The notes beneath the pieces are model-generated. The model saw nothing but the letters and a program-made list of their open reading frames with translations. It was not told where the DNA came from and made no database searches. A stretch of 64,000 nucleotides of DNA from Streptomyces sp. TG1A-60 (lineage in GTDB: Bacteria > Actinomycetota > Actinomycetes > Streptomycetales > Streptomycetaceae), in NCBI RefSeq assembly GCF_037201975.1, contig NZ_CP147520.1, forward strand, positions 2,232,001 to 2,296,000, given 5' to 3'. Positions 14,419 to 44,246 of the stretch are shown piece after piece (within the stretch, counting starts at the first letter, position 1; every line of letters begins with the position of its first letter). The translations under genes were made by a program, and so were the position numbers.

Positions 14419-16548
14419 TCAGCCCCGCAGATCCACCAGCAACGGCGGCGCGTGCTCGCCCCGCACGTTCGTCAGGGACAGCACGGCGTGCCCCGGCGGC
14501 ACACCGTGCGCCAGTTCGGAGGCGGACCAGCGCTCCCGTTCGACCTGACGTACGGTCACGGCGCGGGCGGTCGGCGCGTTGCCCGTGATCGCCCGGCGCA
14601 GCGCGTGCCAGGCCTTGCCCGCCGGGGAGTCGGCGACGATCTGCCGGTCGGTGACGTCCCGCGCCTCGGTCCACTCCTTGCCCCAGACCTCGGCGAAGTC
14701 CTGCCCGTCCCACGGGGTGAGCCCGGACAGCGCCATCCGGCAGCCGATGGTGCCGAGGAGCGGTCCGCGCAGGGGCCGGGGCACGTCGTCCAGGGTCCGG
14801 AGGGTGAGGACGGTACCGGCGTTGGCGGACCGCAGCCGCTGGATGCCGCGTACGGCCTCGGGGGTGACGATCCCGGTCGCGTCGTCCAGCACGAGGCAGG
14901 CGAACAGCGACCGGTCCTCCCGTACCGCGACGCTCGCCGCGAACTGGGCGAGCACCAGCCGCGCCAGGATGCGGGAGGCGTCGGCGTGGCCGCGCTGGGG
15001 GAGGTCGATGCGGACCCGTACGGGATGGTCGAGGGCCCGCAGGGAGAACGGCCGGGACCGGCCGGAGGTGTCGAAGAACCCTGCGAAGGCGGGCCGGTCG
15101 AGGAGGGCGACCCGGTCGGCCAGTACGGCGCCGACGTCGCCGGGGTGGCTGAGCTGGCGCTCCCGCGCGTCCAGCTCCCGCAGCAGCGACTCCTGCCCTG
15201 CGTCCTGGAGGGCCTCGCGCAGCTCGCCCAGCGGGCCGGGCGCGCCGTCCAGCAGCTGCCGCAGCTGCGGCACCGACGGGAACCGCCCGTGCACGGCCCG
15301 AAACGGCCCCAGCAGCTGGGCGAGCACGGTGGTGGAGCGCCGGCTGTCACCGCCGGGGTGCGGGTCGGCGAGGTCCCCGACGAGCGCCTCCGCGAGCACG
15401 GCCGCGGCCTCGTCGGGGTCGGTGGTCCCGCCGTAGAGGTCGAGGTCGTAGACGGACTCCGGGTTTCCGATGCGTACGACGACGTCGTAGGCGTCGGCCG
15501 GGCCGAGTCCGGCGCCCGCCGCGCCCACGACCACCACCGCCGCGCGTCCGGCGAGCGCGTGCAGGCACAGCGACTCGGCGACGGGCCACACGACGGCCCC
15601 GGTCTTCCCCGACCCGGCGGGCCCGACGGCCAGCAGGGAGGTGCCGAGCAGTTCGGGGCCCAGGGCGAGGCCCGTGCCCCGGTAGGCGTACGGGTTGCGC
15701 GGGTCGTCGACGGTGCCGCCCAGCCGGACCTGCCCGGTGACCATGTCGTGCCGGGCCAGCCGGGCCGGCAGGTCCCGCTCCCCGGACGGATGCGGACAGG
15801 CGGCGGCGCCGTCCTTCAACACCGCCCCCGTGAACGTCGCCAGACTGTGCCGCCCGCTGCGCACCCCCTGCCACGTCCGCATGATCCGCGCGTGATCCAC
15901 ATCCCGCATGAGCCCGGCCCGCGCCTCGGCGGCAAGCCGCTCGGCGGCTTCGGCGGCCCCGGCCTCCCGGAAATGGTTCCACTGGGCGGGGTCGTCCTCT
16001 GGTGGCGGTACGGCCTGCCGCTCCCGCGACTGCCGGAAGCGCGGGGCACCGTACCGGCGCCAGACCTCGCCCCAGCGACCGAGCCGGCCGACGCCGATCA
16101 TGATCGCCAGGGCGACGATCGTGTACCAGACATAGCTGAGGACGACCGCGGAGTAGGAGTGGGCGGGCGCCCAGGAGTCCGGGATCATCGCGTAGAGCGG
16201 CACCAGCCACCAGCCGCCGAGGTACCCGTTCCAGAGCAGGGACCAGATCAGCCAGCCGATGAGGAAGGCGATCAGGGCGCCGCCGAGCAGCTGCCGGCCG
16301 GGGACGGTCTCCGGCTCCTCCTCCGGCCGGGGCCGATGCCCGAACCGCCACACGCCGGGCGCCGCGTCCGGTCGCGGTGTCCGCAACCAGGACAGGAAGG
16401 CGTTCCCGTCCGGCCTGGGCGGCGCCCCCGGTGCCCCCGTGGGCAGGGGAGGCACGGGAGGTGCCGCGGGCATCTCCGGCGACCCCGCCGGACGCGGCAC
16501 GGGATGCGCATGCGTGCCCCGCGCGTCCCGCGTTCCGTCGCTGTTCAT
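14419..16548 (-). CDS. VirD4/TraD-like membrane ATPase of unknown role
   Basis: Protein of about 709 aa. It has a Pro-rich N-terminus, two membrane segments (LIAFLIGWLIWSLLW and VVLSYVWYTIVALAIMIGV), then a P-loop GPAGSGKTGAV (near residue 310) and a Walker B-like FACLVLDDAT. This layout resembles type IV coupling proteins, but no relaxase, integrase or other conjugation gene is nearby, so it is probably a chromosomal Streptomyces family and not part of an element. ATG at 16548 is preferred because GGGGG precedes it; an in-frame ATG at 16584 lacks a ribosome-binding site. Divergent from gabT. The function is not known to me. Confidence 0.7.
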   Translation of the reverse strand: MNSDGTRDARGTHAHPVPRPAGSPEMPAAPPVPPLPTGAPGAPPRPDGNAFLSWLRTPRPDAAPGVWRFGHRPRPEEEPETVPGRQLLGGALIAFLIGWLIWSLLWNGYLGGWWLVPLYAMIPDSWAPAHSYSAVVLSYVWYTIVALAIMIGVGRLGRWGEVWRRYGAPRFRQSRERQAVPPPEDDPAQWNHFREAGAAEAAERLAAEARAGLMRDVDHARIMRTWQGVRSGRHSLATFTGAVLKDGAAACPHPSGERDLPARLARHDMVTGQVRLGGTVDDPRNPYAYRGTGLALGPELLGTSLLAVGPAGSGKTGAVVWPVAESLCLHALAGRAAVVVVGAAGAGLGPADAYDVVVRIGNPESVYDLDLYGGTTDPDEAAAVLAEALVGDLADPHPGGDSRRSTTVLAQLLGPFRAVHGRFPSVPQLRQLLDGAPGPLGELREALQDAGQESLLRELDARERQLSHPGDVGAVLADRVALLDRPAFAGFFDTSGRSRPFSLRALDHPVRVRIDLPQRGHADASRILARLVLAQFAASVAVREDRSLFACLVLDDATGIVTPEAVRGIQRLRSANAGTVLTLRTLDDVPRPLRGPLLGTIGCRMALSGLTPWDGQDFAEVWGKEWTEARDVTDRQIVADSPAGKAWHALRRAITGNAPTARAVTVRQVERERWSASELAHGVPPGHAVLSLTNVRGEHAPPLLVDLRG

Positions 16549-16820
16549 CGCGCCTGCCCCCTGACCAGCCGTTCCGTCCACCATCAGCGAGTCAATCTAA
16601 CGCTCCCGCAAGGGGAGTTCACCGTTTGCGTGGCCGGGTGGGCCCCGTGACCACCGTATTACGCGGCTGGGCGCACACCCGTGCCCACCGTTCCTCCATG
16701 TCCAACGCGGACAAGACGAGCCCTCGACAACGCCCACATGGAGCATGCCCACCCCCCGGCCCTCGCCCTAGCCTGCGAGAAAAGAAGGCAAGCGTCCGTA
16801 AGACCTCCCAGGAGCCCCAC

Positions 16821-18155
16821 ATGAGCGCACTTCCCCAGGAGCGCCGCGTAGTCACCGCCATCCCCGGACCGAAGTCCCAGGAGTTGCAGGCGCGTCGTAG
16901 TGCCGCGGTCGCGACGGGGGTGGGGTCGGTGTTGCCGGTGTTCACCGCGCGCGCGGGCGGCGGCATCATCGAGGACGTCGACGGCAACCGGCTCATCGAC
17001 TTCGGCTCGGGCATCGCCGTGACGAGCGTCGGCGCGAGCGCCGAGGCCGTCGTCCGCCGGGCCACCGCGCAGCTGCGGGACTTCACGCACACCTGTTTCA
17101 TGGTCACGCCGTACGAGGGGTACGTGGCGGTCGCCGAGGCCCTCGCCGAGCTGACCCCTGGCGACCACGCCAAGAAGTCCGCGCTGTTCAACAGCGGCGC
17201 CGAGGCCGTCGAGAACGCCGTGAAGATCGCCCGCTCGCACACCGGGCGGCAGGCCGTGGTCGTGTTCGACCACGGCTACCACGGGCGCACCAACCTCACG
17301 ATGGCGCTGACCGCGAAGAACATGCCGTACAAGCACGGCTTCGGCCCGTTCGCGCCCGAGGTGTACCGCGTCCCGGTGGCCTACGGCTACCGCTGGCCGA
17401 CCGGTCCCGAGAACGCCGGCCCCGAAGCCGCCGCGCAGGCGATCGACCAGATCACCAAGCAGGTCGGCGCGGAGAACGTGGCCGCCGTCATCATCGAGCC
17501 GGTGCTCGGCGAGGGCGGCTTCATCGAGCCGGCCAAGGGCTTCCTGCCCGCGATCAGGAAGTTCGCCTCCGACCACGGCATCGTCTTCGTCGCCGACGAG
17601 ATCCAGTCCGGTTTCTGCCGTACCGGGCAGTGGTTCGCGTGCGAGGACGAGGACATCGTCCCGGACCTGATCACCACCGCCAAGGGCATCGCCGGCGGTC
17701 TCCCGCTCGCCGCCGTGACGGGCCGCGCGGAGATCATGGACGCGGCGCACGCGGGCGGCCTGGGCGGCACCTACGGCGGCAACCCCGTCGCCTGCGCGGG
17801 CGCCCTCGGCTCGATCGAGATGATGAAGGAGCTGGATCTCAACGCCCGCGCCCAGTCAATCGAGGCGACGATGAAGGCCCGGCTGGCCACCATGGCCGAG
17901 AAGTTCGACGTCATCGGCGACATCCGGGGCCGCGGCGCCATGATCGCCGTCGAACTGGTCAAGGACCGCACGACGAAGGAGCCGCACCCGGAGGCGACCG
18001 CCGCGCTGGCGAAGGCCTGCCACCAGGAGGGCCTGCTGGTCCTGACCTGTGGCACCTACGGCAACGTGCTCCGCTTCCTGCCCCCGCTCGTCATCGGTGA
18101 GGACCTGCTGAACGAGGGCCTGGACATCATCGAGCAGGCGTTCAGCCGCGTCTGA
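16821..18155 (+). CDS. gabT: 4-aminobutyrate aminotransferase
   Basis: PLP-dependent class III aminotransferase, 444 aa. It transfers the amino group of GABA to 2-oxoglutarate, giving succinate semialdehyde and glutamate. Landmarks are FNSGAEAVENAVKIAR, the cofactor Asp in VFVADEIQSGF (D259) and the Schiff-base Lys in TTAKGIAGG (K288). The ATG at 16821 follows AGGAG, and the N-terminus MSALPQERRVVTAIPGPKS is typical of actinobacterial GabT. It forms the GABA end of polyamine breakdown together with the aldehyde dehydrogenases and pot-like operon in this window. Confidence 0.93.
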   Translation: MSALPQERRVVTAIPGPKSQELQARRSAAVATGVGSVLPVFTARAGGGIIEDVDGNRLIDFGSGIAVTSVGASAEAVVRRATAQLRDFTHTCFMVTPYEGYVAVAEALAELTPGDHAKKSALFNSGAEAVENAVKIARSHTGRQAVVVFDHGYHGRTNLTMALTAKNMPYKHGFGPFAPEVYRVPVAYGYRWPTGPENAGPEAAAQAIDQITKQVGAENVAAVIIEPVLGEGGFIEPAKGFLPAIRKFASDHGIVFVADEIQSGFCRTGQWFACEDEDIVPDLITTAKGIAGGLPLAAVTGRAEIMDAAHAGGLGGTYGGNPVACAGALGSIEMMKELDLNARAQSIEATMKARLATMAEKFDVIGDIRGRGAMIAVELVKDRTTKEPHPEATAALAKACHQEGLLVLTCGTYGNVLRFLPPLVIGEDLLNEGLDIIEQAFSRV

Positions 18156-19454: not shown

Positions 19455-20873
19455 TCAGCTGTCGAAGCCCAGCCCCAGCCGGTCCATGGTCTTCAGCCAC
19501 AGGTTGCGGCGGCCGGCGTGGGAGTCGGCTCGGGCCAGGGACCACTTGGTGAGGGCGATGCCGGTCCAGGCGAACGGCTCCGGCGGGAACGGCAGCGGCT
19601 TCTTGCGGACCATCTCCAGCTCGGTGCGTTCCGTACGCTCCCCCGCCAGCAGGTCGAGCATGACCTCCGCGCCGAACCGGGTGGCGCCCACCCCCAGCCC
19701 CGTGTAGCCGGCCGCGTACGCGACCCTGCCCTGGTGGGCAGTGCCGAAGAACGCCGAGAAGCGGGAGCAGGTGTCGATGGCGCCGCCCCAGGCGTGGGTG
19801 AAGCGGACGCCCTCCAACTGCGGGAAACAGGTGAAGAAGTGCCCGGCGAGCTTGGTGTAGGTCTCCGGCCGGTCGTCGTACTCGGCGCGCACCCGGCCGC
19901 CGTACTGGTACACCGCGTCGTAGCCGCCCCAGAGGATCCGGTTGTCGGCGCTGAGCCGGAAGTAGTGGAACTGGTTGGCCGAGTCCCCGAGCCCCTGCCG
20001 GTTCCTCCAGCCGACCGATGCCAGCCGGTCGGCGGTCAGCGGCTCGGTCATCAGCGCGTAGTCGTAGACGGGGACGGTGTACGCGCGGACGCGTCTGACC
20101 AGGCTGGGGAAGACGTTCGTGCCGAGCGCCACCTGCCGGGTACGGACCTGGCCGTAGGGTGTCCGGACGGCCATGCCGGCGCCGTACGCCTTCAGGGTCA
20201 GCGCGGGGGTGTGCTCGTAGACGCGGACGCCGAGGTCCCGGCAGGCCCGCTTCAGGTTCCAGGCGAGTTTGGCGGGGTGCAGCAGGGCGACACCCCGGCG
20301 GTCGTGGAGGCCCGCCTCGAAGGTGGGTGAGGCGACCTGGTCGCGGACGGCGTCGGCGTCGAGGAACTCGATGCCGACCGAGAGACCCTTGCGTTCGATC
20401 TCGTCGTACCAGTCGCGCACTTCCCAGGCCTGGTACGCCTCGGTGGCGACGTCGATCTCGCCGGTGCGTTCGAAGTCGCAGTCGAGGTCGTGCCGGGCGA
20501 CCGCCGCCTCGATCGCGTCGAGGTTGCGGGCGCCCAGCTCCTGGAGCTTGTGGATCTCGTCGGGCCAGCGGGCGAGACCGTTGGCCAGACCGTGGGTGAG
20601 CGAGGCGGCGCAGAAGCCGCCGTTGCGGCCGGAGGCGGCCCAGCCCACCTCACGGCCTTCCAGCAGCACGACGTCCCGTCGCGGGTCGCGCTCCTTGGCG
20701 ATCAGCGCGGTCCACAGTCCGCTGTAGCCGCCGCCGACGACCAGCAGGTCGCAGGTCTCGGCGCCGGTGAGCGCGGGTTCGGGGTGGGGCTTGCCGGGGT
20801 CGTCGAGCCAGTACGGGACCGGCCGTGCGTCGGAGAGAGACTTCGTCCAGCGGTTCATGGCGCTCGGGGCCAT
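19455..20873 (-). CDS. FAD-dependent oxidoreductase, PuuB/OrdL-like (gamma-glutamylputrescine oxidase type)
   Basis: DAO-family flavoenzyme of 472 aa. The FAD-binding Rossmann motif is CDLLVVGGGYSGLWTALIAKE near residues 41-61, followed by VGWAASGRNGGF, typical of PuuB/OrdL-like amine oxidases. The C-terminal substrate/FAD segment is GYTGLGVGATRFGAEV. It should oxidise an amine such as gamma-glutamylputrescine to an aldehyde in the cytoplasm. GGGAG lies 8 nt before the ATG at 20873. It is the last gene of the polyamine transport operon (39 bp after the potC-like stop), which supports a polyamine role. Confidence 0.85.
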   Translation of the reverse strand: MAPSAMNRWTKSLSDARPVPYWLDDPGKPHPEPALTGAETCDLLVVGGGYSGLWTALIAKERDPRRDVVLLEGREVGWAASGRNGGFCAASLTHGLANGLARWPDEIHKLQELGARNLDAIEAAVARHDLDCDFERTGEIDVATEAYQAWEVRDWYDEIERKGLSVGIEFLDADAVRDQVASPTFEAGLHDRRGVALLHPAKLAWNLKRACRDLGVRVYEHTPALTLKAYGAGMAVRTPYGQVRTRQVALGTNVFPSLVRRVRAYTVPVYDYALMTEPLTADRLASVGWRNRQGLGDSANQFHYFRLSADNRILWGGYDAVYQYGGRVRAEYDDRPETYTKLAGHFFTCFPQLEGVRFTHAWGGAIDTCSRFSAFFGTAHQGRVAYAAGYTGLGVGATRFGAEVMLDLLAGERTERTELEMVRKKPLPFPPEPFAWTGIALTKWSLARADSHAGRRNLWLKTMDRLGLGFDS

Positions 20874-20912: not shown

Positions 20913-21713
20913 TTACGCCTTCTGCCGCTTTCTGCGGTTTCCGATGACCATTCCGGCCACCACGAACAGTACGGCGACCAGGAACATGGCCGTACCGATG
21001 ACATTGATCTGGACGGGCGTGCCGCGCTGCGCCGAACCCCAGACGAACATGGGGAAGGTGACGGTCGAGCCCGCGTTGAAATTGGTGATGATGAAATCGT
21101 CGAAGGAGAGCGCGAAGGCGAGCAGCGCCCCCGCCGCGATGCCGGGGGCGGCGATGGGCAGGGTGACCCGGACGAACGTCTGGACGGGACCGGCGTACAG
21201 ATCGCGCGCGGCCTCCTCCAGCCTCGGGTCCATCGACATCACCCGTGCCTTGACGGCTACGACGACGAAGCTGAGGCAGAACATGATATGGGCGTTCAGA
21301 ATCGTCCAGAATCCCAACCGCGCACCCAGATTGAGAAACAGGGTGAGCAGTGAGGCGGCCATCACGACCTCGGGCATCGCCATCGGCAGGAAGATCAGCG
21401 AGTTCACCGCGCCCCGCGCGCGGAAGCGGTACCGCACCAGCGCGAACGCGATCAGCGTGCCGAGGACGGTCGCGCCCAGCGTCGACCAGGCGGCCAGCTG
21501 AAGGCTCAGGGAGAGCGAGCCGCACAGGTCGGCGACGCCGCACGGGTCGCTCCAGGCGGCCGTGGAGAATTCCTGCCACTCGTAGTTGAAGCGGCCCTTC
21601 GGCTGGTTGAAGGAGAAGACCGTGACGACGACATTCGGCAGAAGCAGATAACCGAGCGTCAGAAGTCCCGCGATGACGACGAGACGGCGCTTGAGCCAGG
21701 TGACGAAGGCCAT
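20913..21713 (-). CDS. potC: Polyamine ABC transporter permease (PotC-like)
   Basis: Membrane permease of 266 aa with about six hydrophobic segments. VVVTVFSFNQPKGRFNYEW near the N-terminus and the loop LEEAARDLYAGPVQTFVRVTLP (the EAA contact with the ATPase) are typical of PotC. ALSFDDFIITNFNAGS is the family's C-terminal signature. The ATG at 21713 abuts the TAA of the potB-like gene with no gap, so the pair is translated together. The symbol is assigned by similarity and operon position. Confidence 0.88.
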   Translation of the reverse strand: MAFVTWLKRRLVVIAGLLTLGYLLLPNVVVTVFSFNQPKGRFNYEWQEFSTAAWSDPCGVADLCGSLSLSLQLAAWSTLGATVLGTLIAFALVRYRFRARGAVNSLIFLPMAMPEVVMAASLLTLFLNLGARLGFWTILNAHIMFCLSFVVVAVKARVMSMDPRLEEAARDLYAGPVQTFVRVTLPIAAPGIAAGALLAFALSFDDFIITNFNAGSTVTFPMFVWGSAQRGTPVQINVIGTAMFLVAVLFVVAGMVIGNRRKRQKA

Positions 21714-22646
21714 TTAAACCAGATCCTCCGTCCCGGACTTTCGGATGTAGAGCGTGACCATGAGGAGGATCGCGGCCATGAGAATGAAAGAAAGGGCCGC
21801 CGCCGTCGGATAGTCGAGAATCCTCAGGAACTGGCTCTGGATGACGTTGCCGATCATCTGGGTGTTGGTGGAGCCGAGGAGTTCGGCGTTCACGTAGTCG
21901 CCGCTCGCCGGGATGAAGGTCAGCAGTGTGCCGGAGACGACGCCCGGGGTGGAGAGCGGCAAGGTGACCTTGCGGAAGGTCGTGAAGGGCTTGGCGTAGA
22001 GGTCGCCGGCCGCCTCGTGCAGCCGCCCGTCGACGCGCTCCAGCGAGGTGTACAGCGGCAGGATCATGAACGGCAGGAAGTTGTACGTGAGGCCGCAGAC
22101 CACCGCGAGCGGGGTGGCCAGCACACGGTCCCCGGCCGTGAGGCCGAGCCAACTGGTGACGTCCAGGACGTGCAGCGAGTCGAGGACGCCGACGACCGGG
22201 CCGCCGTCGGACAGGATCGTCTTCCAGGCGAGGGTGCGGATCAGGAAGCTGGTGAAGAAGGGGGCGATCACCAGGATCAGGATCAGGTGGCGCCAGCGGC
22301 CCGCGCGGAAGGCGATCAGGTACGCCAGCGGATAGCCGAGCAGCAGGCACAGGAGGGTCGCCGTCCCCGCGTAGAGCACCGAGCGCAGGAACTGCGGGTA
22401 GTACTCACTCAGCGCGTCCCAGTAGGTCGCGACGTGCCAGGTGACCTGGTAGCCCTCCTCCAGCGAACCCGTCTGCACGGACGTGGAGGCCTGGTAGACC
22501 ATCGGCATCGCGAAGAACACCAGCAGCCAGACGAGGCCGGGCGCGAGCAGCAGATACGGCGTCCAGCGGCCTCTCCCACGGGGCGGCTTCGCCGTCGGCA
22601 CCCGGGCGAGCGGCGGTGGCGCCTCGGCTTCGGTGAGGGTCGACAT
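21714..22646 (-). CDS. potB: Polyamine ABC transporter permease (PotB-like)
   Basis: Permease of 310 aa with about six hydrophobic segments after a 30-residue cytoplasmic tail. Features are LLLAPGLVWLLVFFAMPMVY, IAPFFTSFLIRTLAWKTIL and the EAA loop LHEAAGDLYAKPFTTFRKVTLP, all usual for PotB/PotH. The ATG at 22646 shares its A with the TGA of the ATPase gene (TGATG). It pairs with the downstream PotC-like protein. Confidence 0.9.
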   Translation of the reverse strand: MSTLTEAEAPPPLARVPTAKPPRGRGRWTPYLLLAPGLVWLLVFFAMPMVYQASTSVQTGSLEEGYQVTWHVATYWDALSEYYPQFLRSVLYAGTATLLCLLLGYPLAYLIAFRAGRWRHLILILVIAPFFTSFLIRTLAWKTILSDGGPVVGVLDSLHVLDVTSWLGLTAGDRVLATPLAVVCGLTYNFLPFMILPLYTSLERVDGRLHEAAGDLYAKPFTTFRKVTLPLSTPGVVSGTLLTFIPASGDYVNAELLGSTNTQMIGNVIQSQFLRILDYPTAAALSFILMAAILLMVTLYIRKSGTEDLV

Positions 22647-23812
22647 CAGACGGCCGCCCCTTCGTCACCCGCGGAGGCCGCCGTCCCAGCCAGCGGGGAC
22701 CGGGCGGCGTCGAGGCCGAACGTGTGCGCGGGACTCCAGTGCAGGACGACGTCGGCGCCCGGGACGAGCCGGGCGTCGCGGTCGATGTTCTGCGCGTACA
22801 CCTCGAACTCGGGGCAGACGGAGCCGTCGATCACGTACTGCGTGGAGACGCCGGTGAAACTGGTGGCGGCGATCCTGCCGGTGACGCGGTTGCGGCCGGC
22901 CGGGATCTCCCCGGCGTCGTCCGCGTGCGTGAGGGTGATCTTCTCGGGGCGGACCCCGACGAGGACCTTGCCGCCGGTCCGGGGGGACGCGCCGCAGCGC
23001 GCCTCGGGGAGGACGAGCTTGCCGTCGCCCGCCTTGAGCACGATGTCGTCGCCGCTCCTGGAGTCGACCTCGGCCTCGATGAGGTTGGAGGTGCCGAGGA
23101 AGTCGGCGACGAAGGTGGTCCGCGGGTACTCGTACAGGTCGGCGGGTGAGCCGAGTTGTTCGACGCGACCGCCGTTCATCACGGCGACCGTGTCGGCCAT
23201 GGTCATGGCCTCCTCCTGGTCGTGCGTGACATGGATGAAGGTGATGCCGACCTCGGTCTGGATGCGCTTCAGCTCCAGTTGCATCCGACGGCGCAGCTTG
23301 AGGTCGAGGGCGCCGAGCGGCTCGTCGAGGAGGAGCACCTTGGGGTGGTTGATGAGCGCGCGGGCGACCGCGACCCGCTGCTGCTGGCCGCCCGACAGTT
23401 GGTGCGGCTTCTTGCGCGCCTGCTCCCCGAGCTGGACCAGCTCCAGCATCTCCCCGACCTGCTTCTTGACGCTCCTGATGCCGCGTCGGCGCAGGCCGAA
23501 GGCGACGTTCTCGAAGATGTCGAGGTGCGGGAAGAGGGCGTACGACTGGAAGACCGTGTTCACCGGCCGCTTGTACGGCGGCAGGTTCGTCACATCCTGG
23601 TCGCCGAGCGAGACCGTGCCGCAGGAAGGTTCCTCCAGGCCGGCGATCATGCGCAGGGTGGTGGTCTTGCCGCAGCCGGAGGCACCGAGGAGGGCGAAGA
23701 AGGAACCCTCCGGCACGGTCAGGTCGAGCGGATGGACGGCGGTGAAGGAGCCGTAGGTCCTGCCGATGCCGGAGAGGCGGACGTCACCGCCGCTGTGCTC
23801 TGTCGTCTTCAT
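22646..23812 (-). CDS. potA: Polyamine ABC transporter ATP-binding protein (PotA-like)
   Basis: ATPase of 388 aa that energises polyamine uptake. Walker A is GASGCGKT (residues 43-50), the signature is LSGGQQQRVAVARAL, Walker B is VLLLDEPLGALD, and the switch His is in FIHVTHDQEEAM. A C-terminal TOBE domain (about 270-370) includes VGVRPEKITL. ATG at 23812 is chosen, with GAGGA close upstream. A GTG at 23824 that overlaps the binding-protein stop as GTGA is equally plausible and would add four residues. Length is normal for PotA. Confidence 0.9.
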   Translation of the reverse strand: MKTTEHSGGDVRLSGIGRTYGSFTAVHPLDLTVPEGSFFALLGASGCGKTTTLRMIAGLEEPSCGTVSLGDQDVTNLPPYKRPVNTVFQSYALFPHLDIFENVAFGLRRRGIRSVKKQVGEMLELVQLGEQARKKPHQLSGGQQQRVAVARALINHPKVLLLDEPLGALDLKLRRRMQLELKRIQTEVGITFIHVTHDQEEAMTMADTVAVMNGGRVEQLGSPADLYEYPRTTFVADFLGTSNLIEAEVDSRSGDDIVLKAGDGKLVLPEARCGASPRTGGKVLVGVRPEKITLTHADDAGEIPAGRNRVTGRIAATSFTGVSTQYVIDGSVCPEFEVYAQNIDRDARLVPGADVVLHWSPAHTFGLDAARSPLAGTAASAGDEGAAV

Positions 23813-23820
23813 CGTCCTCG

Positions 23821-25269
23821 TCACGCCCCCGTCAGCTTCGCGAACTTTTCTTCGTACGCCGTCTCTTCCTTCTGGCTGAGGGAGCGGAAGGCGCGGGACT
23901 CGGCCGCCATGGCCGCGTCGGGAATGATCAGCGGGTTGTTCGCCGCGTCCTCGTCGATCCTGGCCAGCTCCGCCTTCACGCCGTCGACGGGACACACGTA
24001 GTTGATGTACGCGGCGAGTTCGGCGGCCGGCTTCGGCTCGTAGTAGTAGTCGATGAGCCGTTCGGCGTTGGTCTTGTGCCGGGCCCTGTTCGGGATCAGC
24101 AGGTTGTCCGTCGAGGTCATGTAGCCGCTGTCGGGGATGACGAAGTCGACGTCCGGGGTGTCGGCCTTGAGCTGGACGACGTCACCGGCCCAGGCGATAC
24201 AGGCGGCCAGGTCGCCCTTGCTGAGGTCCGAGGTGTAGTCGTTGCCCGTGAAGCGGCGTATCTGGCCCTTGTCGACGGCCTTCTGGAGACGGGCGATTGC
24301 GGCGTCGTAGTCGTCGTCGGTGAACCTCGCGGGGTCCTTGCCCATGTCCAGCAGGGTCATCCCGACGCTGTCGCGCATCTCGGAGAGGAAGCCGATGCGG
24401 CCCTTGAGCCCGGGGTTGTCGAGCATGTCGGAGACGGACCTGACCTCCTGGCCGTCGAGCGCCTTCTTGTTGTAGGCGATGACGGTCGAGATGCCCTGCC
24501 AGGGGTAGGAGTAGGCGCGGCCGGGGTCCCAGTCGGGATCACGGAACTGCTGGGAGAGGTTCGTGTAGGCGTGGGGCAGGTTCGACGCGTCCAGTTTCTG
24601 GACCCACCCGAAGCGGATCAGCCGGGCCGCGAGCCAGTCGGTGACGCATATCAGGTCGCGTCCGGTGTCCTGGCCGGCCGCGAGCTGTGGCTTGATCTTG
24701 CCGAAGAACTCGACGTTGTCGTTGATGTCCTCGGTGTACTTGACCTTGATACCGGTGCGCCGGGCGAACTGCTCCAGGCTGGGGTGGTGCTTGCCGCTGT
24801 CGTCGACGTCCATGTACTCGGTCCAGTTGGAGAAGGCGACTTCCTTCTCCTTGGCCGAGTGGTCCTCGGACGAGCCGCCCGAGGTGTTCCTCGCCGCGGG
24901 GATGCCGCAGGCGCTCAGCGCCCCGAGCCCGCCGGCGGCGAGCGCGCCGCCCGTTCCGGCGCGCAGCAGCGCACGGCGGCTGAGGGCGGCCCTGCCGCCC
25001 GTGAGGCCGCGCCGCACGGCGGTCGCCCGGGCCGGGGACAGGCGGTCGGGCTCGTACTGCTCCATGCGCGTGGCGGCCACGGCCGAGTCCACGTCGTCCG
25101 GCCCGGCCGGCTCGTGCCTGAGGACCTCGTCACCGGCCGCGGGAGCGACGCCCGTGTACGTACGACCCGAGGTGCCCTTCACCAGGCGGCCGGCGACGTA
25201 CTGCGCGCCGTCCGCGAGGCGTTCCGCTGCGGGGAATCGGTCCGGGGTGGCGGTGGCCGGGTTCTGCAT
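23821..25269 (-). CDS. potD: Polyamine-binding lipoprotein (PotD-like) fused to an aldehyde dehydrogenase N-terminus
   Basis: Chimeric reading frame of 482 aa. Residues 1-68 (start ATG 25269 after GGAGGAGAG) are the beginning of an aldehyde dehydrogenase. Residue 69 (ATG 25065) begins a normal PotD-type precursor, with Tat-like LSRRALLRAG and lipobox LSAC about 50 residues further on. The rest is a periplasmic-type binding protein (FSNWTEYMDVDD, YPWQGISTVIAYNKKAL). Native PotD would start at 25065 (414 aa), but no ribosome-binding site precedes that ATG. Translation from 25269 would bury the signal peptide at residues 97-121, where export is doubtful. An in-frame deletion that removed most of an upstream dehydrogenase gene is the likely origin. 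First gene of the transport operon. Confidence 0.85.
   Translation of the reverse strand: MQNPATATPDRFPAAERLADGAQYVAGRLVKGTSGRTYTGVAPAAGDEVLRHEPAGPDDVDSAVAATRMEQYEPDRLSPARATAVRRGLTGGRAALSRRALLRAGTGGALAAGGLGALSACGIPAARNTSGGSSEDHSAKEKEVAFSNWTEYMDVDDSGKHHPSLEQFARRTGIKVKYTEDINDNVEFFGKIKPQLAAGQDTGRDLICVTDWLAARLIRFGWVQKLDASNLPHAYTNLSQQFRDPDWDPGRAYSYPWQGISTVIAYNKKALDGQEVRSVSDMLDNPGLKGRIGFLSEMRDSVGMTLLDMGKDPARFTDDDYDAAIARLQKAVDKGQIRRFTGNDYTSDLSKGDLAACIAWAGDVVQLKADTPDVDFVIPDSGYMTSTDNLLIPNRARHKTNAERLIDYYYEPKPAAELAAYINYVCPVDGVKAELARIDEDAANNPLIIPDAAMAAESRAFRSLSQKEETAYEEKFAKLTGA
25066..25269 (-). pseudogene. Remnant 5' end of an aldehyde dehydrogenase gene
   Basis: These 68 codons read YVAGRLVKGTSGRTYTGVAP and DDVDSAVAATR. 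They align with YIDGEFRDAVDGRTTEVVNP and ADVDAAMAAAE at the same place in the dehydrogenase at 32697-34133. The gene's own strong ribosome-binding site is kept. Everything from about codon 69 on, including the catalytic domain, is missing, and the frame runs straight into potD. Confidence 0.8.
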
Positions 25270-25365
25270 GTCGCTCTCCTCCGCCGTCGCCCCCTCTGGC
25301 CCCGGGGACGGGTGGCGTAGCTCCAGCTCGATTTGAGTGCCGATACTGACAGAGGCAAGTGGCAT

Positions 25366-25409
25366 CAACAAGGGATTCCGTTGTTGCCTTTTGGTTACGC
25401 GACGGAATC
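25366..25409. promoter_or_regulatory. Interlocked inverted repeats, candidate operator
   Basis: CAACAA (25366-25371) pairs with TTGTTG (25381-25386), and GATTCCGT (25374-25381) pairs with ACGGAATC (25402-25409). These AT-richer arms lie in the 212-bp divergent region between the pot-like operon and the NADAR gene, where a regulator of polyamine uptake could bind. Confidence 0.45.
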
Positions 25410-32696: not shown

Positions 32697-34133
32697 TCAG
32701 TCCAGCGACGTCATCACGTGCTTGATCCGCGTGTAGTCGTCGAACCCGTAGCCCGACAGGTCCTTGCCGTACCCGGACTTCTTGAACCCCCCGTGCGGCA
32801 TCTCCGCGACCAGTGGAATGTGCGTGTTGATCCACACGCACCCGAAGTCCAGCGCCTTCGACATCCGCATCGCCCGCCCGTGGTCCTTCGTCCACACCGA
32901 CGAGGCGAGGGCGTACTCCACGCCGTTCGCCCACTCGACGGCCTGTCCCTCGTCCGCGAAGGACTGCACGGTGATGACCGGTCCGAAGACCTCCTTCTGG
33001 ATGATCTCGTCGTCCTGCTTCAGCCCGGAGACGACGGTCGGCGCGTAGAAGTACCCCTTCTCGCCGACCTGGTGACCGCCGGACTCGACCTTGGCATGGG
33101 CCGGCAGCCGCTCGATGAACCCGGCGACCTGCTTGAGCTGGTGGGGGTTGTTGAGCGGCCCGTACAGCACGTCCTCGTCGTCCGGCTGCCCGGTCTTCGT
33201 CTCTGCGGCGGCCTTCGCCAGCGCGGCCACGAACTCGTCGTGGACGGACTCCTGGACGAGGACGCGGGTCGCGGCCGTGCAGTCCTGCCCGGCGTTGAAG
33301 AAGCCCGCCACCGAGATGTCCTCGACGGCCTTGGCGATGTCGGTGTCGCCGAAGACGACGACCGGCGCCTTGCCGCCCAGCTCCAGGTGGACGCGCTTGA
33401 GGTCCTTGGACGCGGTCTCGGCGACGGACATGCCCGCGCGCACGGAACCGGTGATGGAGGCCATCGCCGGGACCGGGTGCTCGACCATCAGACGCCCGGT
33501 GTCACGGTCGCCCGTGATCACGTTGAAGACGCCCCTCGGCAGGATCGCACCGATGATCTCGGCGATCAGGACGGTCGACGCCGGGGTGGTGTCCGACGGC
33601 TTCAGTACGACCGTGTTGCCCGCGGCGATCGCCGGCGCGAACTTCCACACGGCCATCATCATCGGGTAGTTCCACGGCGCGACCTGTGCGCAGACACCGA
33701 CCGGCTCACGGCGGACGATGGAGGTCATGCCCTCCATGTACTCGCCGGCCGAGCGGCCCTCCAGCATCCGCGCGGCGCCCGCGAAGAATCGGATCTGGTC
33801 GACCATGGGCGGGATCTCCTCGGAGCGGGTCAGGCCGATCGGCTTGCCCGTGTTCTCCACCTCCGCCGCGATGAGCTCCTCGGCCCGCTCCTCGAACGCG
33901 TCGGCGATCTTCAGCAGGGCCTTCTGGCGCTCGGCGGGGGTCGTGTCCCGCCAGGCCGGGAAGGCGGCCTCGGCGGCGGCCATCGCCGCGTCGACGTCGG
34001 CCTGCCCGGACAGCGGCGCGGTCGCGTAGGCCTCGCCGGTCGCGGGGTTGACCACCTCGGTGGTCCGTCCGTCGACGGCGTCACGGAATTCCCCGTCGAT
34101 GTAGTTACGCAGACGACGCAGCTCGGTGCTCAC
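32697..34133 (-). CDS. Aldehyde dehydrogenase, gamma-aminobutyraldehyde/betaine-aldehyde type
   Basis: NAD-dependent enzyme of 478 aa. Landmarks are Asn in APWNYP (N155), ITGS, base Glu in LELGGKAP (E251) and catalytic Cys in NAGQDCTAATR (C285). ARMLEGRSAGEYMEGMTSIV and the C-terminal GGFKKSGYGKDLSGYG fit aminobutyraldehyde or betaine-aldehyde dehydrogenases. Start is GTG at 34133 after GGAGGG; a longer frame lacks a ribosome-binding site. It is divergent from an AsnC regulator and a class III aminotransferase, which together would convert putrescine to 4-aminobutyraldehyde and then to GABA. This may be the only complete enzyme for that step in the window, since another gene of the class is reduced to its first 68 codons. 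Confidence 0.9.
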   Translation of the reverse strand: MSTELRRLRNYIDGEFRDAVDGRTTEVVNPATGEAYATAPLSGQADVDAAMAAAEAAFPAWRDTTPAERQKALLKIADAFEERAEELIAAEVENTGKPIGLTRSEEIPPMVDQIRFFAGAARMLEGRSAGEYMEGMTSIVRREPVGVCAQVAPWNYPMMMAVWKFAPAIAAGNTVVLKPSDTTPASTVLIAEIIGAILPRGVFNVITGDRDTGRLMVEHPVPAMASITGSVRAGMSVAETASKDLKRVHLELGGKAPVVVFGDTDIAKAVEDISVAGFFNAGQDCTAATRVLVQESVHDEFVAALAKAAAETKTGQPDDEDVLYGPLNNPHQLKQVAGFIERLPAHAKVESGGHQVGEKGYFYAPTVVSGLKQDDEIIQKEVFGPVITVQSFADEGQAVEWANGVEYALASSVWTKDHGRAMRMSKALDFGCVWINTHIPLVAEMPHGGFKKSGYGKDLSGYGFDDYTRIKHVMTSLD

Positions 34134-34245: not shown

Positions 34246-34298
34246 TCCGCAAGGTTGACGCCCATAGACAACGAATTTCATCGATCCTGCCTTGCGGA
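34246..34298. promoter_or_regulatory. Long-spaced inverted repeat, candidate AsnC/Lrp site
   Basis: TCCGCAAGG (34246-34254) and its complement CCTTGCGGA (34290-34298) flank 35 bp of AT-rich DNA in the divergent region between the dehydrogenase and the regulator gene. A -35-like TTGACG (34255-34260) lies inside. The position suits autoregulation by the AsnC-type protein. Confidence 0.5.
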
Positions 34299-34327
34299 AC
34301 TGTCGATACCTCGTGCACAGTGAGGTC

Positions 34328-34849
34328 GTGGCCAGTCGAAACGCAGACCAGAGAGACTCCAGGGAAGCCGGGAAGGACTCCAAGGAGCCCAGGAGCGGCA
34401 CACCGCAGCTGGACGCCGTCTCCCTCGCCATCGTCGAGCAGCTCCAGGAGGACGGACGCCGGCCGTACGCCGCGATCGGCAAGGCCGTCGGCCTGTCCGA
34501 GGCGGCCGTGCGCCAGCGTGTCCAGAAGCTGCTCGACCAGGGCGTGATGCAGATCGTCGCCGTCACCGACCCGCTCACCGTGGGCTTCCGTCGGCAGGCG
34601 ATGCTCGGCGTCAACGTCGACGGCGACCTGGATCCCGTGGCGGACGCGCTGACGGCCATGGCGGAGGTCGAGTACATCGTGATCACCGCCGGCTCCTTCG
34701 ACCTCATGGTGGAGATCGTCTGCGAGGACGACGACCACCTCCTGGAGGTCATCAACAAACGCATCCGGACCCTGCCCGGCGTGCGGTCCACCGAGAGCTT
34801 CGTCTACCTCAAGCTCAAGAAGCAGACCTACATGTGGGGAACCCGATAG
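34328..34849 (+). CDS. Lrp/AsnC family transcriptional regulator
   Basis: DNA-binding regulator of about 173 aa. The AsnC-type helix-turn-helix is LDAVSLAIVEQLQEDGRRPY then AAIGKAVGLSEAAVRQRVQK (about residues 30-70). The C-terminal RAM ligand-binding domain includes GSFDLMVEIVCEDDDHLLEV and a final TESFVYLKLKKQTYMWGTR. Start GTG at 34328 is uncertain; GTGAGG lies just before it, and GTG and TTG codons upstream are in frame. It precedes the aminotransferase by 2 bp and is divergent from the aldehyde dehydrogenase. Probably a local regulator responding to an amine or amino acid. Confidence 0.85.
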   Translation: MASRNADQRDSREAGKDSKEPRSGTPQLDAVSLAIVEQLQEDGRRPYAAIGKAVGLSEAAVRQRVQKLLDQGVMQIVAVTDPLTVGFRRQAMLGVNVDGDLDPVADALTAMAEVEYIVITAGSFDLMVEIVCEDDDHLLEVINKRIRTLPGVRSTESFVYLKLKKQTYMWGTR

Positions 34850-34851
34850 CC

Positions 34852-36225
34852 GTGAGCGACGACACTTCCAAGGACCTCAGCAGGACCGCGTACGACCACC
34901 TGTGGATGCACTTCACCCGCATGTCCACGTACGAGAAGGCCCCGGTCCCCACCATCGTCCGGGGCGAGGGCACGTACGTCTACGACGACCGGGGCAAGCG
35001 GTACCTCGACGGTCTCGCGGGACTGTTCGTGGTCCAGGCGGGCCACGGCCGCACCGAGCTCGCGGAGACGGCGTTCAAGCAGGCGCAGGAGCTGGCCTTC
35101 TTCCCGGTGTGGTCCTACGCCCACCCGAAGGCCGTCGAACTGGCGGAACGTATCGCCTCCTACGCTCCGGGCGATCTGAACAAGGTCTTCTTCACCACCG
35201 GCGGCGGCGAGGCGGTCGAGACCGCCTGGAAGCTCGCCAAGCAGTACTTCAAGCTCCAGGGCAAGCCGACCAAGTACAAGGTCATCTCGCGTGCCGTGGC
35301 CTACCACGGCACCCCGCAGGGCGCCCTGTCCATCACCGGCCTGCCGGCCCTGAAGGCCCCCTTCGAACCGCTGGTGCCGGGCGCGCACAAGGTCCCGAAC
35401 ACCAACATCTACCGGGCCCCGCTCTTCGGCGACGACCCGGAGGCCTTCGGCCGCTGGGCCGCCGACCAGATCGAGCAACAGATCCTCTTCGAAGGCCCGG
35501 AGACGGTCGCGGCGGTCTTCCTGGAGCCGGTGCAGAACGCCGGCGGCTGCTTCCCGCCCCCGCCCGGCTACTTCCAGCGGGTCCGGGAGATCTGCGACCA
35601 GTACGACGTACTGCTGGTGTCGGACGAGGTCATCTGCGCCTTCGGCCGGCTCGGCACGATGTTCGCCTGCGACAAGTTCGGCTACGTCCCGGACATGATC
35701 ACCTGCGCCAAGGGCATGACCTCGGGCTACTCCCCGATAGGCGCCTGCGTCGTCTCGGACCGCATAGCCGAGCCCTTCTACAAGGGCGACAACACCTTCC
35801 TGCACGGCTACACCTTCGGCGGCCACCCGGTCTCCGCGGCCGTCGGCCTCGCCAACCTCGAACTGTTCGAGCGCGAGGGCCTCAACCAGCACGTCCTCGA
35901 CAACGAGGGCGCGTTCCGGTCGACGCTGGAGAAGCTGTACGACCTGCCGATCGTCGGCGACGTCCGAGGCAACGGCTACTTCTACGGAATCGAGCTGGTC
36001 AAGGACAAGGCGACGAAGGAGAGCTTCGACGACGAGGAGACCGAGCGGATCCTCTACGGCTTCCTGTCGAAGAAGCTGTTCGAGAACGGCCTGTACTGCC
36101 GTGCCGACGACCGGGGCGACCCGGTCGTCCAGCTCGCCCCGCCGCTGATCTCCGACCAGTCGGCCTTCGACGAGATCGAGCAGATCCTGCGCGCGACCCT
36201 GACGGAGGCGTGGACCCTGCTGTAA
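34852..36225 (+). CDS. Class III aminotransferase, putrescine/polyamine type (SpuC-like)
   Basis: PLP enzyme of 457 aa. Landmarks are FFTTGGGEAVETAWKLAKQY, AYHGTPQGALSITG, the cofactor Asp in LLVSDEVICAFGRLG (D258) and Schiff-base Lys in TCAKGMTSGYSPIG (K287). The family includes omega-amine:pyruvate and putrescine:pyruvate aminotransferases, and the dehydrogenase next door supports putrescine or a related diamine as donor. GTG at 34852 is used, 2 bp after the regulator stop. A GTG at 34834 inside the regulator gene is also possible. Confidence 0.88.
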   Translation: MSDDTSKDLSRTAYDHLWMHFTRMSTYEKAPVPTIVRGEGTYVYDDRGKRYLDGLAGLFVVQAGHGRTELAETAFKQAQELAFFPVWSYAHPKAVELAERIASYAPGDLNKVFFTTGGGEAVETAWKLAKQYFKLQGKPTKYKVISRAVAYHGTPQGALSITGLPALKAPFEPLVPGAHKVPNTNIYRAPLFGDDPEAFGRWAADQIEQQILFEGPETVAAVFLEPVQNAGGCFPPPPGYFQRVREICDQYDVLLVSDEVICAFGRLGTMFACDKFGYVPDMITCAKGMTSGYSPIGACVVSDRIAEPFYKGDNTFLHGYTFGGHPVSAAVGLANLELFEREGLNQHVLDNEGAFRSTLEKLYDLPIVGDVRGNGYFYGIELVKDKATKESFDDEETERILYGFLSKKLFENGLYCRADDRGDPVVQLAPPLISDQSAFDEIEQILRATLTEAWTLL

Positions 36226-42528: not shown

Positions 42529-44246
42529 CAGAACTCCCCCGTGCGATCGGTACGGAGTCGTTCCAGCACCAGCAGGGCCACCGCGCACACCACCATCAGA
42601 ATCGTCGAAAGGGCCATGGCCTGGCCGTAGTTGAGGTCCCCGGGCCGGCCGAGCAGCCGTGCCACGGCGACCGGCAGCGTCGGGTTGTCGGCGCGCGCGA
42701 TGAACACGGTCGCCCCGAACTCCCCGAGCGACACGGCGAAGGCGAACCCGGCGGCGATCAGCAGCGCCCGCCGCACCATCGGCAGGTCGACCTCGCGCCA
42801 CACCCGCCAGGGCGACGCCCCGAGCACGGCCGCCGCCTCCCGCAGCCGCTCGTCCACCGCCCGCAGCACGGGCAGCATGGTCCGTACGACGAAGGGGACG
42901 CCCACCAGTGCCTGGGCGAGCGGCACCAGGATCCAGGACGACCGCAGGTCCAGCGGCGGCTCGTCCAGCGCGATCAGGAACCCGAAGCCGACGGTCACCG
43001 CGGACACCCCGAGCGGCAGCATGAGCAGCGCGTCGAAGCCCCTGACGAGCCGGCCGGCCCGCCGGGTGAGCGCGGCGGCGGAGAGGGAGCCGATCAGCAG
43101 GGCGATGGCGGTCGCGGCCAGCGCGTAGCTGAGCGAGTTGCCGACCGCCTCGATCGGCGCCACCAGGAAGATCCCGCTGTCGTCACCGGTCAGCGCCTTG
43201 TAGTAGCCGAATCCCGGCGCGTCGAGCGACCGCTCCACCAGCACGCCCAGCGGCAGCAGAATCAGCACCACGACGGTGGCGAGGACCATGCCCAGCAACG
43301 CCCACTGTCCCGCCCCGCGTGGCTTCCGGGCCGTGAGCGACGCGTCCCCCAGCCGCAGCGCGCTCTCCCGCCGCCGTACGGTCCAGGCGTGCACGACGAG
43401 GACCAGAGCGACCGCGACGAACTGCACGAGCGTCAGCACGGCGGCCGTCGCCAGGTCGAAGATCTCCGAGGTCTGCCGGTAGATCTCCACTTCGAGCGTC
43501 GAGAAGGTCGGCCCACCGAGAACCTGCACCACCCCGAACGAGGTGAAGGTGAAGAGGAACACCATCAGCGTGGCGGCGGCCACGGCGGGCCCGAGCGCCG
43601 GGAGCGTCACCTTCCGCCAGGCCGCGAGCGGGGACGCCCCGAGCATCCGCGCGGCCTCCTCCTGCCGGGGGTCGAGCTGCGCCCAGAGGCCGCCCACCGT
43701 CCGTACGACGACGGCGTAGTTGAAGAACACATGCGCGAGCAGGATCGCCCAGACCGTCGTGTCCAGACGTACGCCCCACAGGTCGTCGAACATCCCGCCA
43801 CGCCCGACCAGCGCCAGGAACGCCGTGCCGACGACCACGGTGGGCAGCACGAACGGCACGGTGACGACCGCCCGCAGGATGTCCTTGCCCCTGAAATCGA
43901 AGCGCGCGAAGACATACGCGCCAGGGAGCGCGATCAGCAGCGTGAGCGCGGTCGAGACGAGCGCCTGCCAGGTGGTGAACCACAGCACGTGCCGGATCCC
44001 GGAGTCCCCCAGCACCTCCGCGATCCGCCCGAACCGCCAGCCCCCGCCTTCCCCTTCGGCCTTCAGCCCCCGTGCGACGATCGCGGCGACGGGATAGGCG
44101 AAGAACACCGCGAAGAAAACGACGGGCAGGACCATGAGCCCGAGCCGCGCCGCGCTGCCTGTGCGGGCCCTCCGCCGAGGGGCCTTCGCCGCCTCGGCAG
44201 GTGTCCCGGTTACTTCAGTACGAGCGAGGTCCACGACTTGACCCAC
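42528..44246 (-). CDS. thiP: Thiamine ABC transporter permease, two-half type
   Basis: Permease of 572 aa made of two fused six-helix halves, as in ThiP/FbpB. Each half has an EAA loop: RQEEAARMLGASPLAAWRKV and LREAAAVLGASPWRVWREV. GTG at 44246 lies 37 nt inside the binding-protein gene. GTG at 44234 is also possible, and there is no start codon after the thiB stop, so the overlap is real. The halves would form the complete membrane channel. Confidence 0.88.
   Translation of the reverse strand: MGQVVDLARTEVTGTPAEAAKAPRRRARTGSAARLGLMVLPVVFFAVFFAYPVAAIVARGLKAEGEGGGWRFGRIAEVLGDSGIRHVLWFTTWQALVSTALTLLIALPGAYVFARFDFRGKDILRAVVTVPFVLPTVVVGTAFLALVGRGGMFDDLWGVRLDTTVWAILLAHVFFNYAVVVRTVGGLWAQLDPRQEEAARMLGASPLAAWRKVTLPALGPAVAAATLMVFLFTFTSFGVVQVLGGPTFSTLEVEIYRQTSEIFDLATAAVLTLVQFVAVALVLVVHAWTVRRRESALRLGDASLTARKPRGAGQWALLGMVLATVVVLILLPLGVLVERSLDAPGFGYYKALTGDDSGIFLVAPIEAVGNSLSYALAATAIALLIGSLSAAALTRRAGRLVRGFDALLMLPLGVSAVTVGFGFLIALDEPPLDLRSSWILVPLAQALVGVPFVVRTMLPVLRAVDERLREAAAVLGASPWRVWREVDLPMVRRALLIAAGFAFAVSLGEFGATVFIARADNPTLPVAVARLLGRPGDLNYGQAMALSTILMVVCAVALLVLERLRTDRTGEF

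What the first reader, a model, noticed from the sequence alone, without database searches (positions are those of the whole stretch)
23821..25269. Aldehyde dehydrogenase N-terminus fused in frame to the PotD lipoprotein
Codons 1-68 match the start of aldehyde dehydrogenases, including the complete one at 32697-34133, and retain a strong ribosome-binding site. Codon 69 is the natural ATG of a PotD-type precursor, whose signal peptide then starts nearly 100 residues in. The junction is precise. An in-frame deletion of a dehydrogenase gene seems to have put potD under the dehydrogenase start. Export of the binding protein, and so polyamine uptake, may be impaired, or translation may start internally at 25065.
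Basis: partly seen in the sequence, partly recalled or inferred. Interest (0 to 1): 0.75.

Follow-up and report, generated by a model that had tools for sequence, protein, structure and literature searches.

The report
Enzyme gene remnant fused to transporter protein
In this Streptomyces genome a deletion removed most of an aldehyde-dehydrogenase gene and joined its first 68 codons, in frame, to the next gene, which encodes a polyamine-binding lipoprotein; some related strains have lost the same enzyme gene too, so this is a real but modest case of operon remodelling.

Summary
ORF 25269..23821 (-) has 482 codons. Codons 1-68 are the start of a SCO5666-type gamma-aminobutyraldehyde dehydrogenase (72% identity over 69 residues, E 4e-24); codon 69 (25065) is the native potD start. 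In 76 of 80 named relatives a full dehydrogenase gene lies directly upstream of potD, including the two nearest, so the deletion of about 1.4 kb arose on this lineage. It removed potD's own ribosome-binding site; the dehydrogenase start keeps a strong one. The remnant shows relaxed constraint while PotD stays conserved, which argues against an assembly artefact and against a dead PotD. The likely product is a 482-residue precursor whose Tat-type lipoprotein signal (RR at 98, lipobox Cys at 121) still delivers normal mature PotD; this step is inferred. The dehydrogenase is lost or decayed at this locus in 6 of 353 potD-bearing genomes surveyed, the window included. A second start fusion (G180) and a start capture (S. 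flaveus, S. ureilyticus) lie elsewhere on the PotD tree. New member of a known kind: operon gene loss with start-site capture.

The parts
25066..25269 (-). Remnant of the SCO5666-type aldehyde dehydrogenase: start codon and codons 1-68, in frame with potD
   Evidence: 72% identity to P0122 residues 1-69, E 4.4e-24; 5 of 23 otherwise invariant residues changed
25066..25073 (-). Junction zone CCACGCGC: at most 8 nt shared by the two sides of the deletion
   Evidence: Relatives' alignments overlap here; junction alignment
23821..25065 (-). potD: polyamine-binding lipoprotein precursor from its native ATG, 414 codons plus stop
   Evidence: SBP_bac_8 and PotD/PotF models; P0001 and relatives start here; PDB relatives PotD/PotF
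24902..24979 (-). Tat-type lipoprotein signal core: SRR motif to lipobox LSAC (RR at residue 98, Cys at 121 of the fusion)
   Evidence: coordinates computed from residues 97 to 122 approximately
25270..25285 (-). Strong ribosome-binding site of the former dehydrogenase, GGCGGAGGAGAGCGAC
   Evidence: Pairing energy -10.2 kcal/mol
25343..25409 (-). Conserved leader: inverted repeat GATTCCGT-N20-ACGGAATC and promoter-like TTGTTG-N17-CAGTAT
   Evidence: Found in the window; the repeat is in 74 of 80 named loci; the generic promoter scan found nothing
20913..23812 (-). potA (23812-22646), potB (22646-21714), potC (21713-20913): rest of the transporter, open reading frames intact
   Evidence: PotA, PotB and PotC models match
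32697..34133 (-). Intact paralogous aminobutyraldehyde dehydrogenase (SCO5657 type), possible backup for the lost enzyme
   Evidence: PRK13473 707 bits, above its cut-off of 615; 50% to P0122

Best explanation
The ancestral operon was leader, SCO5666-type dehydrogenase, potD, potA, potB, potC (shown by relatives). On this lineage a deletion of about 1,415 bp removed the dehydrogenase from codon 69 on, the spacer and potD's own ribosome-binding site, joining dehydrogenase codons 1-68 in frame to the potD start codon (shown). Ribosomes now start at the dehydrogenase ATG and make a 482-residue precursor (inferred). The extra residues only lengthen the n-region before the twin-arginine motif; the precursor is still exported, lipidated and cleaved at Cys121, so the mature PotD is unchanged and the extension is discarded (inferred). 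The paralogue at 32697-34133 covers the lost enzyme step (inferred).
For: 76 of 80 named loci have the full dehydrogenase upstream of potD. Start-to-start distance is 1,618-1,620 bp in the closest relatives and 204 bp here. No orthologue of the dehydrogenase elsewhere in G000. Ribosome-binding site -10.2 kcal/mol at the dehydrogenase start, -5.5 at codon 69, native potD sites in 78 relatives -9.1 to -7.4. Remnant relaxed, PotD conserved. RR-to-Cys spacing of 23 is kept in five divergent precursors while the stretch before RR varies, RR at 13, 23, 49, 60 and 98.
Against: No expression or protein data. The database record of the own genome starts at codon 69. In 185 of 194 PotD proteins held RR is at 30, so an n-region of 97 is far outside the norm. 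PMC10924467 notes a Streptomyces Tat protein whose very long n-region went away when the start codon was reassigned (passage), so long n-regions can be start-site errors. 42% of shuffles of the 204-nt remnant are also stop-free, so the open frame is weak evidence. The relaxed omega is not unique: window ranks 2nd of 26.
Confidence: 0.65

Rival explanations
1. The deletion is real, but PotD is made mainly from its old start codon at 25065 by weak or translation-coupled internal initiation, giving the ordinary 414-residue precursor; the remnant is incidental.
For: The native n-region start MEQYEPDRLSP is kept; the own-genome protein record starts there; in G180 a good site before the native ATG is kept beside the fused start.
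Against: The native ribosome-binding site is deleted; -5.5 kcal/mol is reached by 41% of 986 ATGs in the window.
Confidence: 0.22
2. The fused precursor is made but exported poorly, so polyamine uptake through this transporter is impaired or lost.
For: 97 residues before the RR motif against 29 normally.
Against: PotD shows 1 of 265 relatives-invariant positions changed and omega 0.235 against 0.20 among relatives, while the remnant has drifted; potABC remain open.
Confidence: 0.1
3. The junction is an assembly or sequencing artefact and the full dehydrogenase gene is present.
For: Reads were not available to check.
Against: The genome is one contig, 99.97% complete, with no orthologue elsewhere; at most 8 nt shared at the junction; remnant-specific substitutions; comparable losses in other strains.
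Confidence: 0.03

Closest known systems
S. coelicolor SCO5666 dehydrogenase followed by SCO5667-70 polyamine ABC transporter (PMC5403932, PMC9397018, passages)
   Same: Same predicted functions in the same order; PotD and PotABC kept here
   Different: The dehydrogenase is reduced to 68 codons fused to PotD
Streptomyces genome G180 (locus L149)
   Same: Same leader, dehydrogenase start joined in frame to PotD
   Different: Only about 17 codons kept; the short piece is weakly similar by BLAST (E 4.8) and rests on leader, position and RFAxGAQ; a good ribosome-binding site before the native ATG remains (-10.7)
S. flaveus (L091) and S. ureilyticus (L115, same record as G377)
   Same: Dehydrogenase absent; potD sits behind the dehydrogenase leader and ribosome-binding site
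   Different: A few or no dehydrogenase codons kept and the PotD n-region is shortened (RR at 23 and 13); sister rows on the tree, possibly one event
PotD/PotF polyamine-binding proteins of solved structure (1pot, 1a99, 8y5h)
   Same: Homologous over the mature domain, best E 4e-27
   Different: The solved chains lack any dehydrogenase-derived extension; the match begins after the signal

Membership tests
PotD/PotF-type polyamine-binding lipoprotein | Solute-binding domain of the family | tested here: met
   SBP_bac_8 95.7 bits against cut-off 27; PotD/PotF chains in the PDB. The E. coli-type equivalog cut-offs for PotD and PotF are not reached (105.6 of 582 and 98.4 of 636)
PotD/PotF-type polyamine-binding lipoprotein | Signal peptide with lipobox cysteine | tested here: met
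   LSAC with Cys121; S119, C121 and G122 invariant in the 19-row alignment; by motif only, no signal-peptide predictor available
PotD/PotF-type polyamine-binding lipoprotein | Binds polyamines | not testable with these tools
   No binding data; S. coelicolor SCO5667 is itself only predicted
Twin-arginine (Tat) substrate | S-R-R-x-hydrophobic-hydrophobic motif before the hydrophobic core | tested here: met
   SRRALL; R98 and R99 invariant in 19 rows
Twin-arginine (Tat) substrate | Tat-dependent export, also with the long n-region | not testable with these tools
   Needs a tat mutant
Gamma-aminobutyraldehyde dehydrogenase | Full-length enzyme including the catalytic part | tested here: not met
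   Only residues 1-68 of about 511 remain; it is a remnant, not a member
In-frame gene fusion by deletion | Both parents adjacent and separate in relatives, fused here | tested here: met
   76 of 80 named loci; junction
In-frame gene fusion by deletion | A fused protein is produced | not testable with these tools
   Needs proteomics; start-site strength favours it

The most novel reading that the evidence does not exclude
Streptomyces lineages repeatedly shed the first gene of this operon while keeping its leader and translation start, and hand that start to potD; the retained dehydrogenase residues serve as an unusually long but tolerated, perhaps tuned, n-region of a Tat lipoprotein, so the fusion is kept for PotD output rather than being a mere scar.
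Probability: 0.2. Interest if true: 0.6.

Novelty: new member of a known kind. Interest (0 to 1): 0.42.

Why it matters
It is a clean natural experiment: an exported binding protein whose only strong start now lies in the remains of a cytosolic enzyme, yet which still evolves like a working protein. With G180 and the short n-regions of S. flaveus and S. ureilyticus it bears on how free the region before a twin-arginine signal is, and on how an operon can lose its first gene and keep the next one expressed. It is also a warning for annotation: the database record starts at codon 69, although the ribosome-binding site there is gone.

Tried and rejected
Chance similarity of codons 1-68 to dehydrogenases was rejected: family models are weak, but the orthologue match is strong and the DNA runs into the dehydrogenase gene of relatives. 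Origin from the paralogue at 32697-34133 was rejected: the remnant is 72% identical to P0122, which is 50% identical to that paralogue. An ancestral short extension without a dehydrogenase was rejected by gene order. A structure model of the fusion from 19 sequences had mean pLDDT 39.6 and was not used. The generic promoter scan found no site. Seven literature searches listed no title or abstract start that describes this fusion; they cover open-licence PMC papers only and I read no whole paper. Passages were seen of PMC5403932, PMC9397018, PMC10924467 and PMC8998196; the others only as search listings.

Limits on counts. In some searches the lists of genomes without a match were cut, so the 13 genomes with PotD but no dehydrogenase at the strict cut-offs were worked out by hand from the listed positives. 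G028, G050, G102 and G198 have PotD cut by a contig end (coordinates) and say nothing. G008 holds only dehydrogenase residues 206-511 next to potD, in an open frame of 337 aa (contig end or frame break, not resolved). G224 and G344 have the gene in place but broken in frame. G000, G180, G192, G359, G377 and G387 have lost or decayed it. One search read nine loci: eight of the twelve other genomes plus G351 as an intact control. For the other 340 genomes with both genes I did not check adjacency one by one. The unnamed and named sets overlap (G377 is L115, G139 is L061). The 87-row tree was enriched for loss cases: to the window and the 80 named loci I added only G351 and five unnamed lost or broken ones (G224 and the contig-end genomes were left out), and its 10 labelled rows include two frameshifted ones; its change count (6, at least 4 forced by well-supported branches) is a rough guide. 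Of 11 relatives measured, one (L069) has a mis-set start because the alignment did not reach its ATG. The 25 relatives are those nearest by PotD whose dehydrogenase alignment began at residue 1. G000 has one PotD match at E<=1e-3 but 27 members of the wider SBP_bac_8 family, so I do not claim that it is the only polyamine-binding protein.

Full report
What is there. The minus-strand ORF 25269..23821 has 482 codons. GGCGGAGGAGAGCGAC precedes its ATG. Codons 1-68 are the start of an aldehyde dehydrogenase and codon 69 is the start codon of potD. Family models see the first part only weakly (best NCBIfam E 4e-4, no Pfam match), but the orthologous P0122, named gamma-aminobutyraldehyde dehydrogenase in Streptomyces, matches residues 1-69 at 72%, E 4.4e-24.

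What relatives show. In S. coelicolor SCO5666 is a predicted gamma-aminobutyraldehyde dehydrogenase and SCO5667-70 a predicted polyamine ABC transporter (passages of PMC5403932 and PMC9397018). In the printed upstream sequence of 29 of 29 unnamed relatives the end of a dehydrogenase gene precedes potD. Among 80 named loci 76 have a full dehydrogenase directly upstream, one has it in two pieces and three lack it. A 450-bp query across the window's junction aligns end to end only in G000 among the alignments listed for 392 genus genomes; relatives listed split it near 278-285 (list cut at about 150 rows). A search of about 5.8 billion proteins with residues 1-110 gave 101 hits, none covering more than 55% of the query.

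The deletion. The distance from dehydrogenase start to potD start is 1,619 bp in five close relatives and 1,618-1,620 in the two nearest, against 204 bp here, so about 1,415 bp are gone. The breakpoint lies in CCACGCGC, 25073..25066; the ancestral shared stretch is at most these 8 nt and may be shorter, because the dehydrogenase copies of relatives differ there. PotD's spacer and its CGAAAGGGC ribosome-binding site went with it. The PotD tree places the window with S. caniscabiei and Streptomyces sp. MNU76 (support 96/80), both with a full dehydrogenase gene, so the event belongs to the window's own lineage.

Which start is used. Pairing with the 16S 3' end (recalled sequence) gives -10.2 kcal/mol before the dehydrogenase ATG and -5.5 before codon 69; 8% and 41% of 986 ATGs in the window are as strong or stronger. 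Native potD sites in 78 relatives lie between -9.1 and -7.4. Initiation at the dehydrogenase start and read-through in frame is therefore the likelier route. This is inference: the own-genome protein record starts at codon 69.

Is it alive. Against 25 relatives codons 1-66 show median omega 0.53 (0.26 among relatives), and 5 of 23 residues invariant in the relatives are changed, against at most 2 in any one relative. Omega alone is not unique: the window ranks 2nd of 26. In PotD 1 of 265 invariant residues is changed and omega is 0.235 against 0.20 among relatives. So the remnant has drifted while PotD is kept, which speaks for a real deletion that is not recent and for a working PotD. The open frame is weak evidence by itself: 42% of shuffles of the remnant are open too.

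Export. The twin-arginine motif is at residue 98 and the lipobox cysteine at 121, against 30 and 53 from the native start. RR is at 30 in 185 of 194 PotD proteins held (5 at 31, one at 32, one at 41, two without the motif). In five divergent precursors RR lies at 13 (S. ureilyticus), 23 (S. flaveus), 49 (G180), 60 (G008) and 98 (window), each time 23 residues before the cysteine. The part before RR can thus differ in length, though some of these starts are my reading. If the signal works, cleavage at the cysteine discards all dehydrogenase residues. Against this, PMC10924467 describes a Streptomyces Tat protein whose very long n-region went away with a reassigned start (passage). The structure model was too poor to help.

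Loss in other strains. Of 392 genus genomes 353 have the PotD orthologue (E<=1e-140) and 343 the dehydrogenase orthologue (E<=1e-240); 13 have the first without the second. Four are cut by contig ends, one is unresolved, two have the gene broken in frame, and six have lost or decayed it at the locus: G000, G180, G192, G359, G377 and G387. Among named loci S. flaveus and Streptomyces sp. S.PNR 29 add two; S. ureilyticus is G377. On the PotD tree the label needs 6 changes, at least 4 forced by well-supported branches, with the sampling limits told elsewhere. G180 keeps the leader and joins about 17 residues in frame to PotD; the similarity of this piece is weak by BLAST (E 4.8) and rests on leader, start position and RFAxGAQ. 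G180 also keeps a good site, -10.7, before its native ATG. In S. flaveus and S. ureilyticus potD follows the dehydrogenase leader and ribosome-binding site almost directly. In L095, G192, G359 and G387 the native potD site remains. G180, G192, G359, G377 and G387 each hold a dehydrogenase 48-49% identical to P0122, as the window does at 50%; G180 and G377 also hold one at 68% and 70% elsewhere.

Leader. An inverted repeat GATTCCGT-N20-ACGGAATC followed by TTGTTG-N17-CAGTAT lies at 25409..25343. The repeat is in 74 of 80 named loci and in 5 of 9 loss or broken loci tested; some of the other four do not reach that far upstream. It is a candidate operator and promoter, by my reading; no regulator was tested, and the generic promoter scan found nothing. 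PMC8998196 reports binding of EpuRI and EpuRII to promoters of other polyamine genes, sco5657 among EpuRI targets (passages).

Verdict. The consequence is more likely a tolerated longer precursor than lost uptake. It is a well-supported case of a known kind of event, made more interesting by comparable losses at the same operon.

Noticed in passing
25343-25409 (-): Conserved inverted repeat GATTCCGT-N20-ACGGAATC with a promoter-like TTGTTG-N17-CAG(G/T)AT in the operon leader, in 74 of 80 named loci and kept in several strains that lost the dehydrogenase: a candidate operator for an unidentified regulator.
   Followed up: partly
L149, L091, L115, L095, L150, L152, L153: Loss or decay of the SCO5666-type dehydrogenase in front of potD in other Streptomyces, with different junctions.
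   Followed up: partly
window 16377-18155 (+), 19455-20873 (-), 34292-34849 (+), 34834-36225 (+): Neighbouring genes fit polyamine catabolism: GABA transaminase, FAD oxidoreductase (best model aminophosphonate oxidoreductase, below its cut-off), a small gene without an NCBIfam match at E<=1e-20 in the place of the Lrp-type regulator SCO5656, and an aspartate-aminotransferase-family enzyme.
   Followed up: no
window 44210-45295 (-): Another ABC-type binding protein (SBP_bac_8 match at G000:C1:2276309-2277136; ORF); not a close PotD relative.
   Followed up: no
L116 (Streptomyces sp. SW4), L147 (G344), L155 (G224): Dehydrogenase gene present upstream of potD but broken in frame in these assemblies, by mutation or sequencing error.
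   Followed up: no
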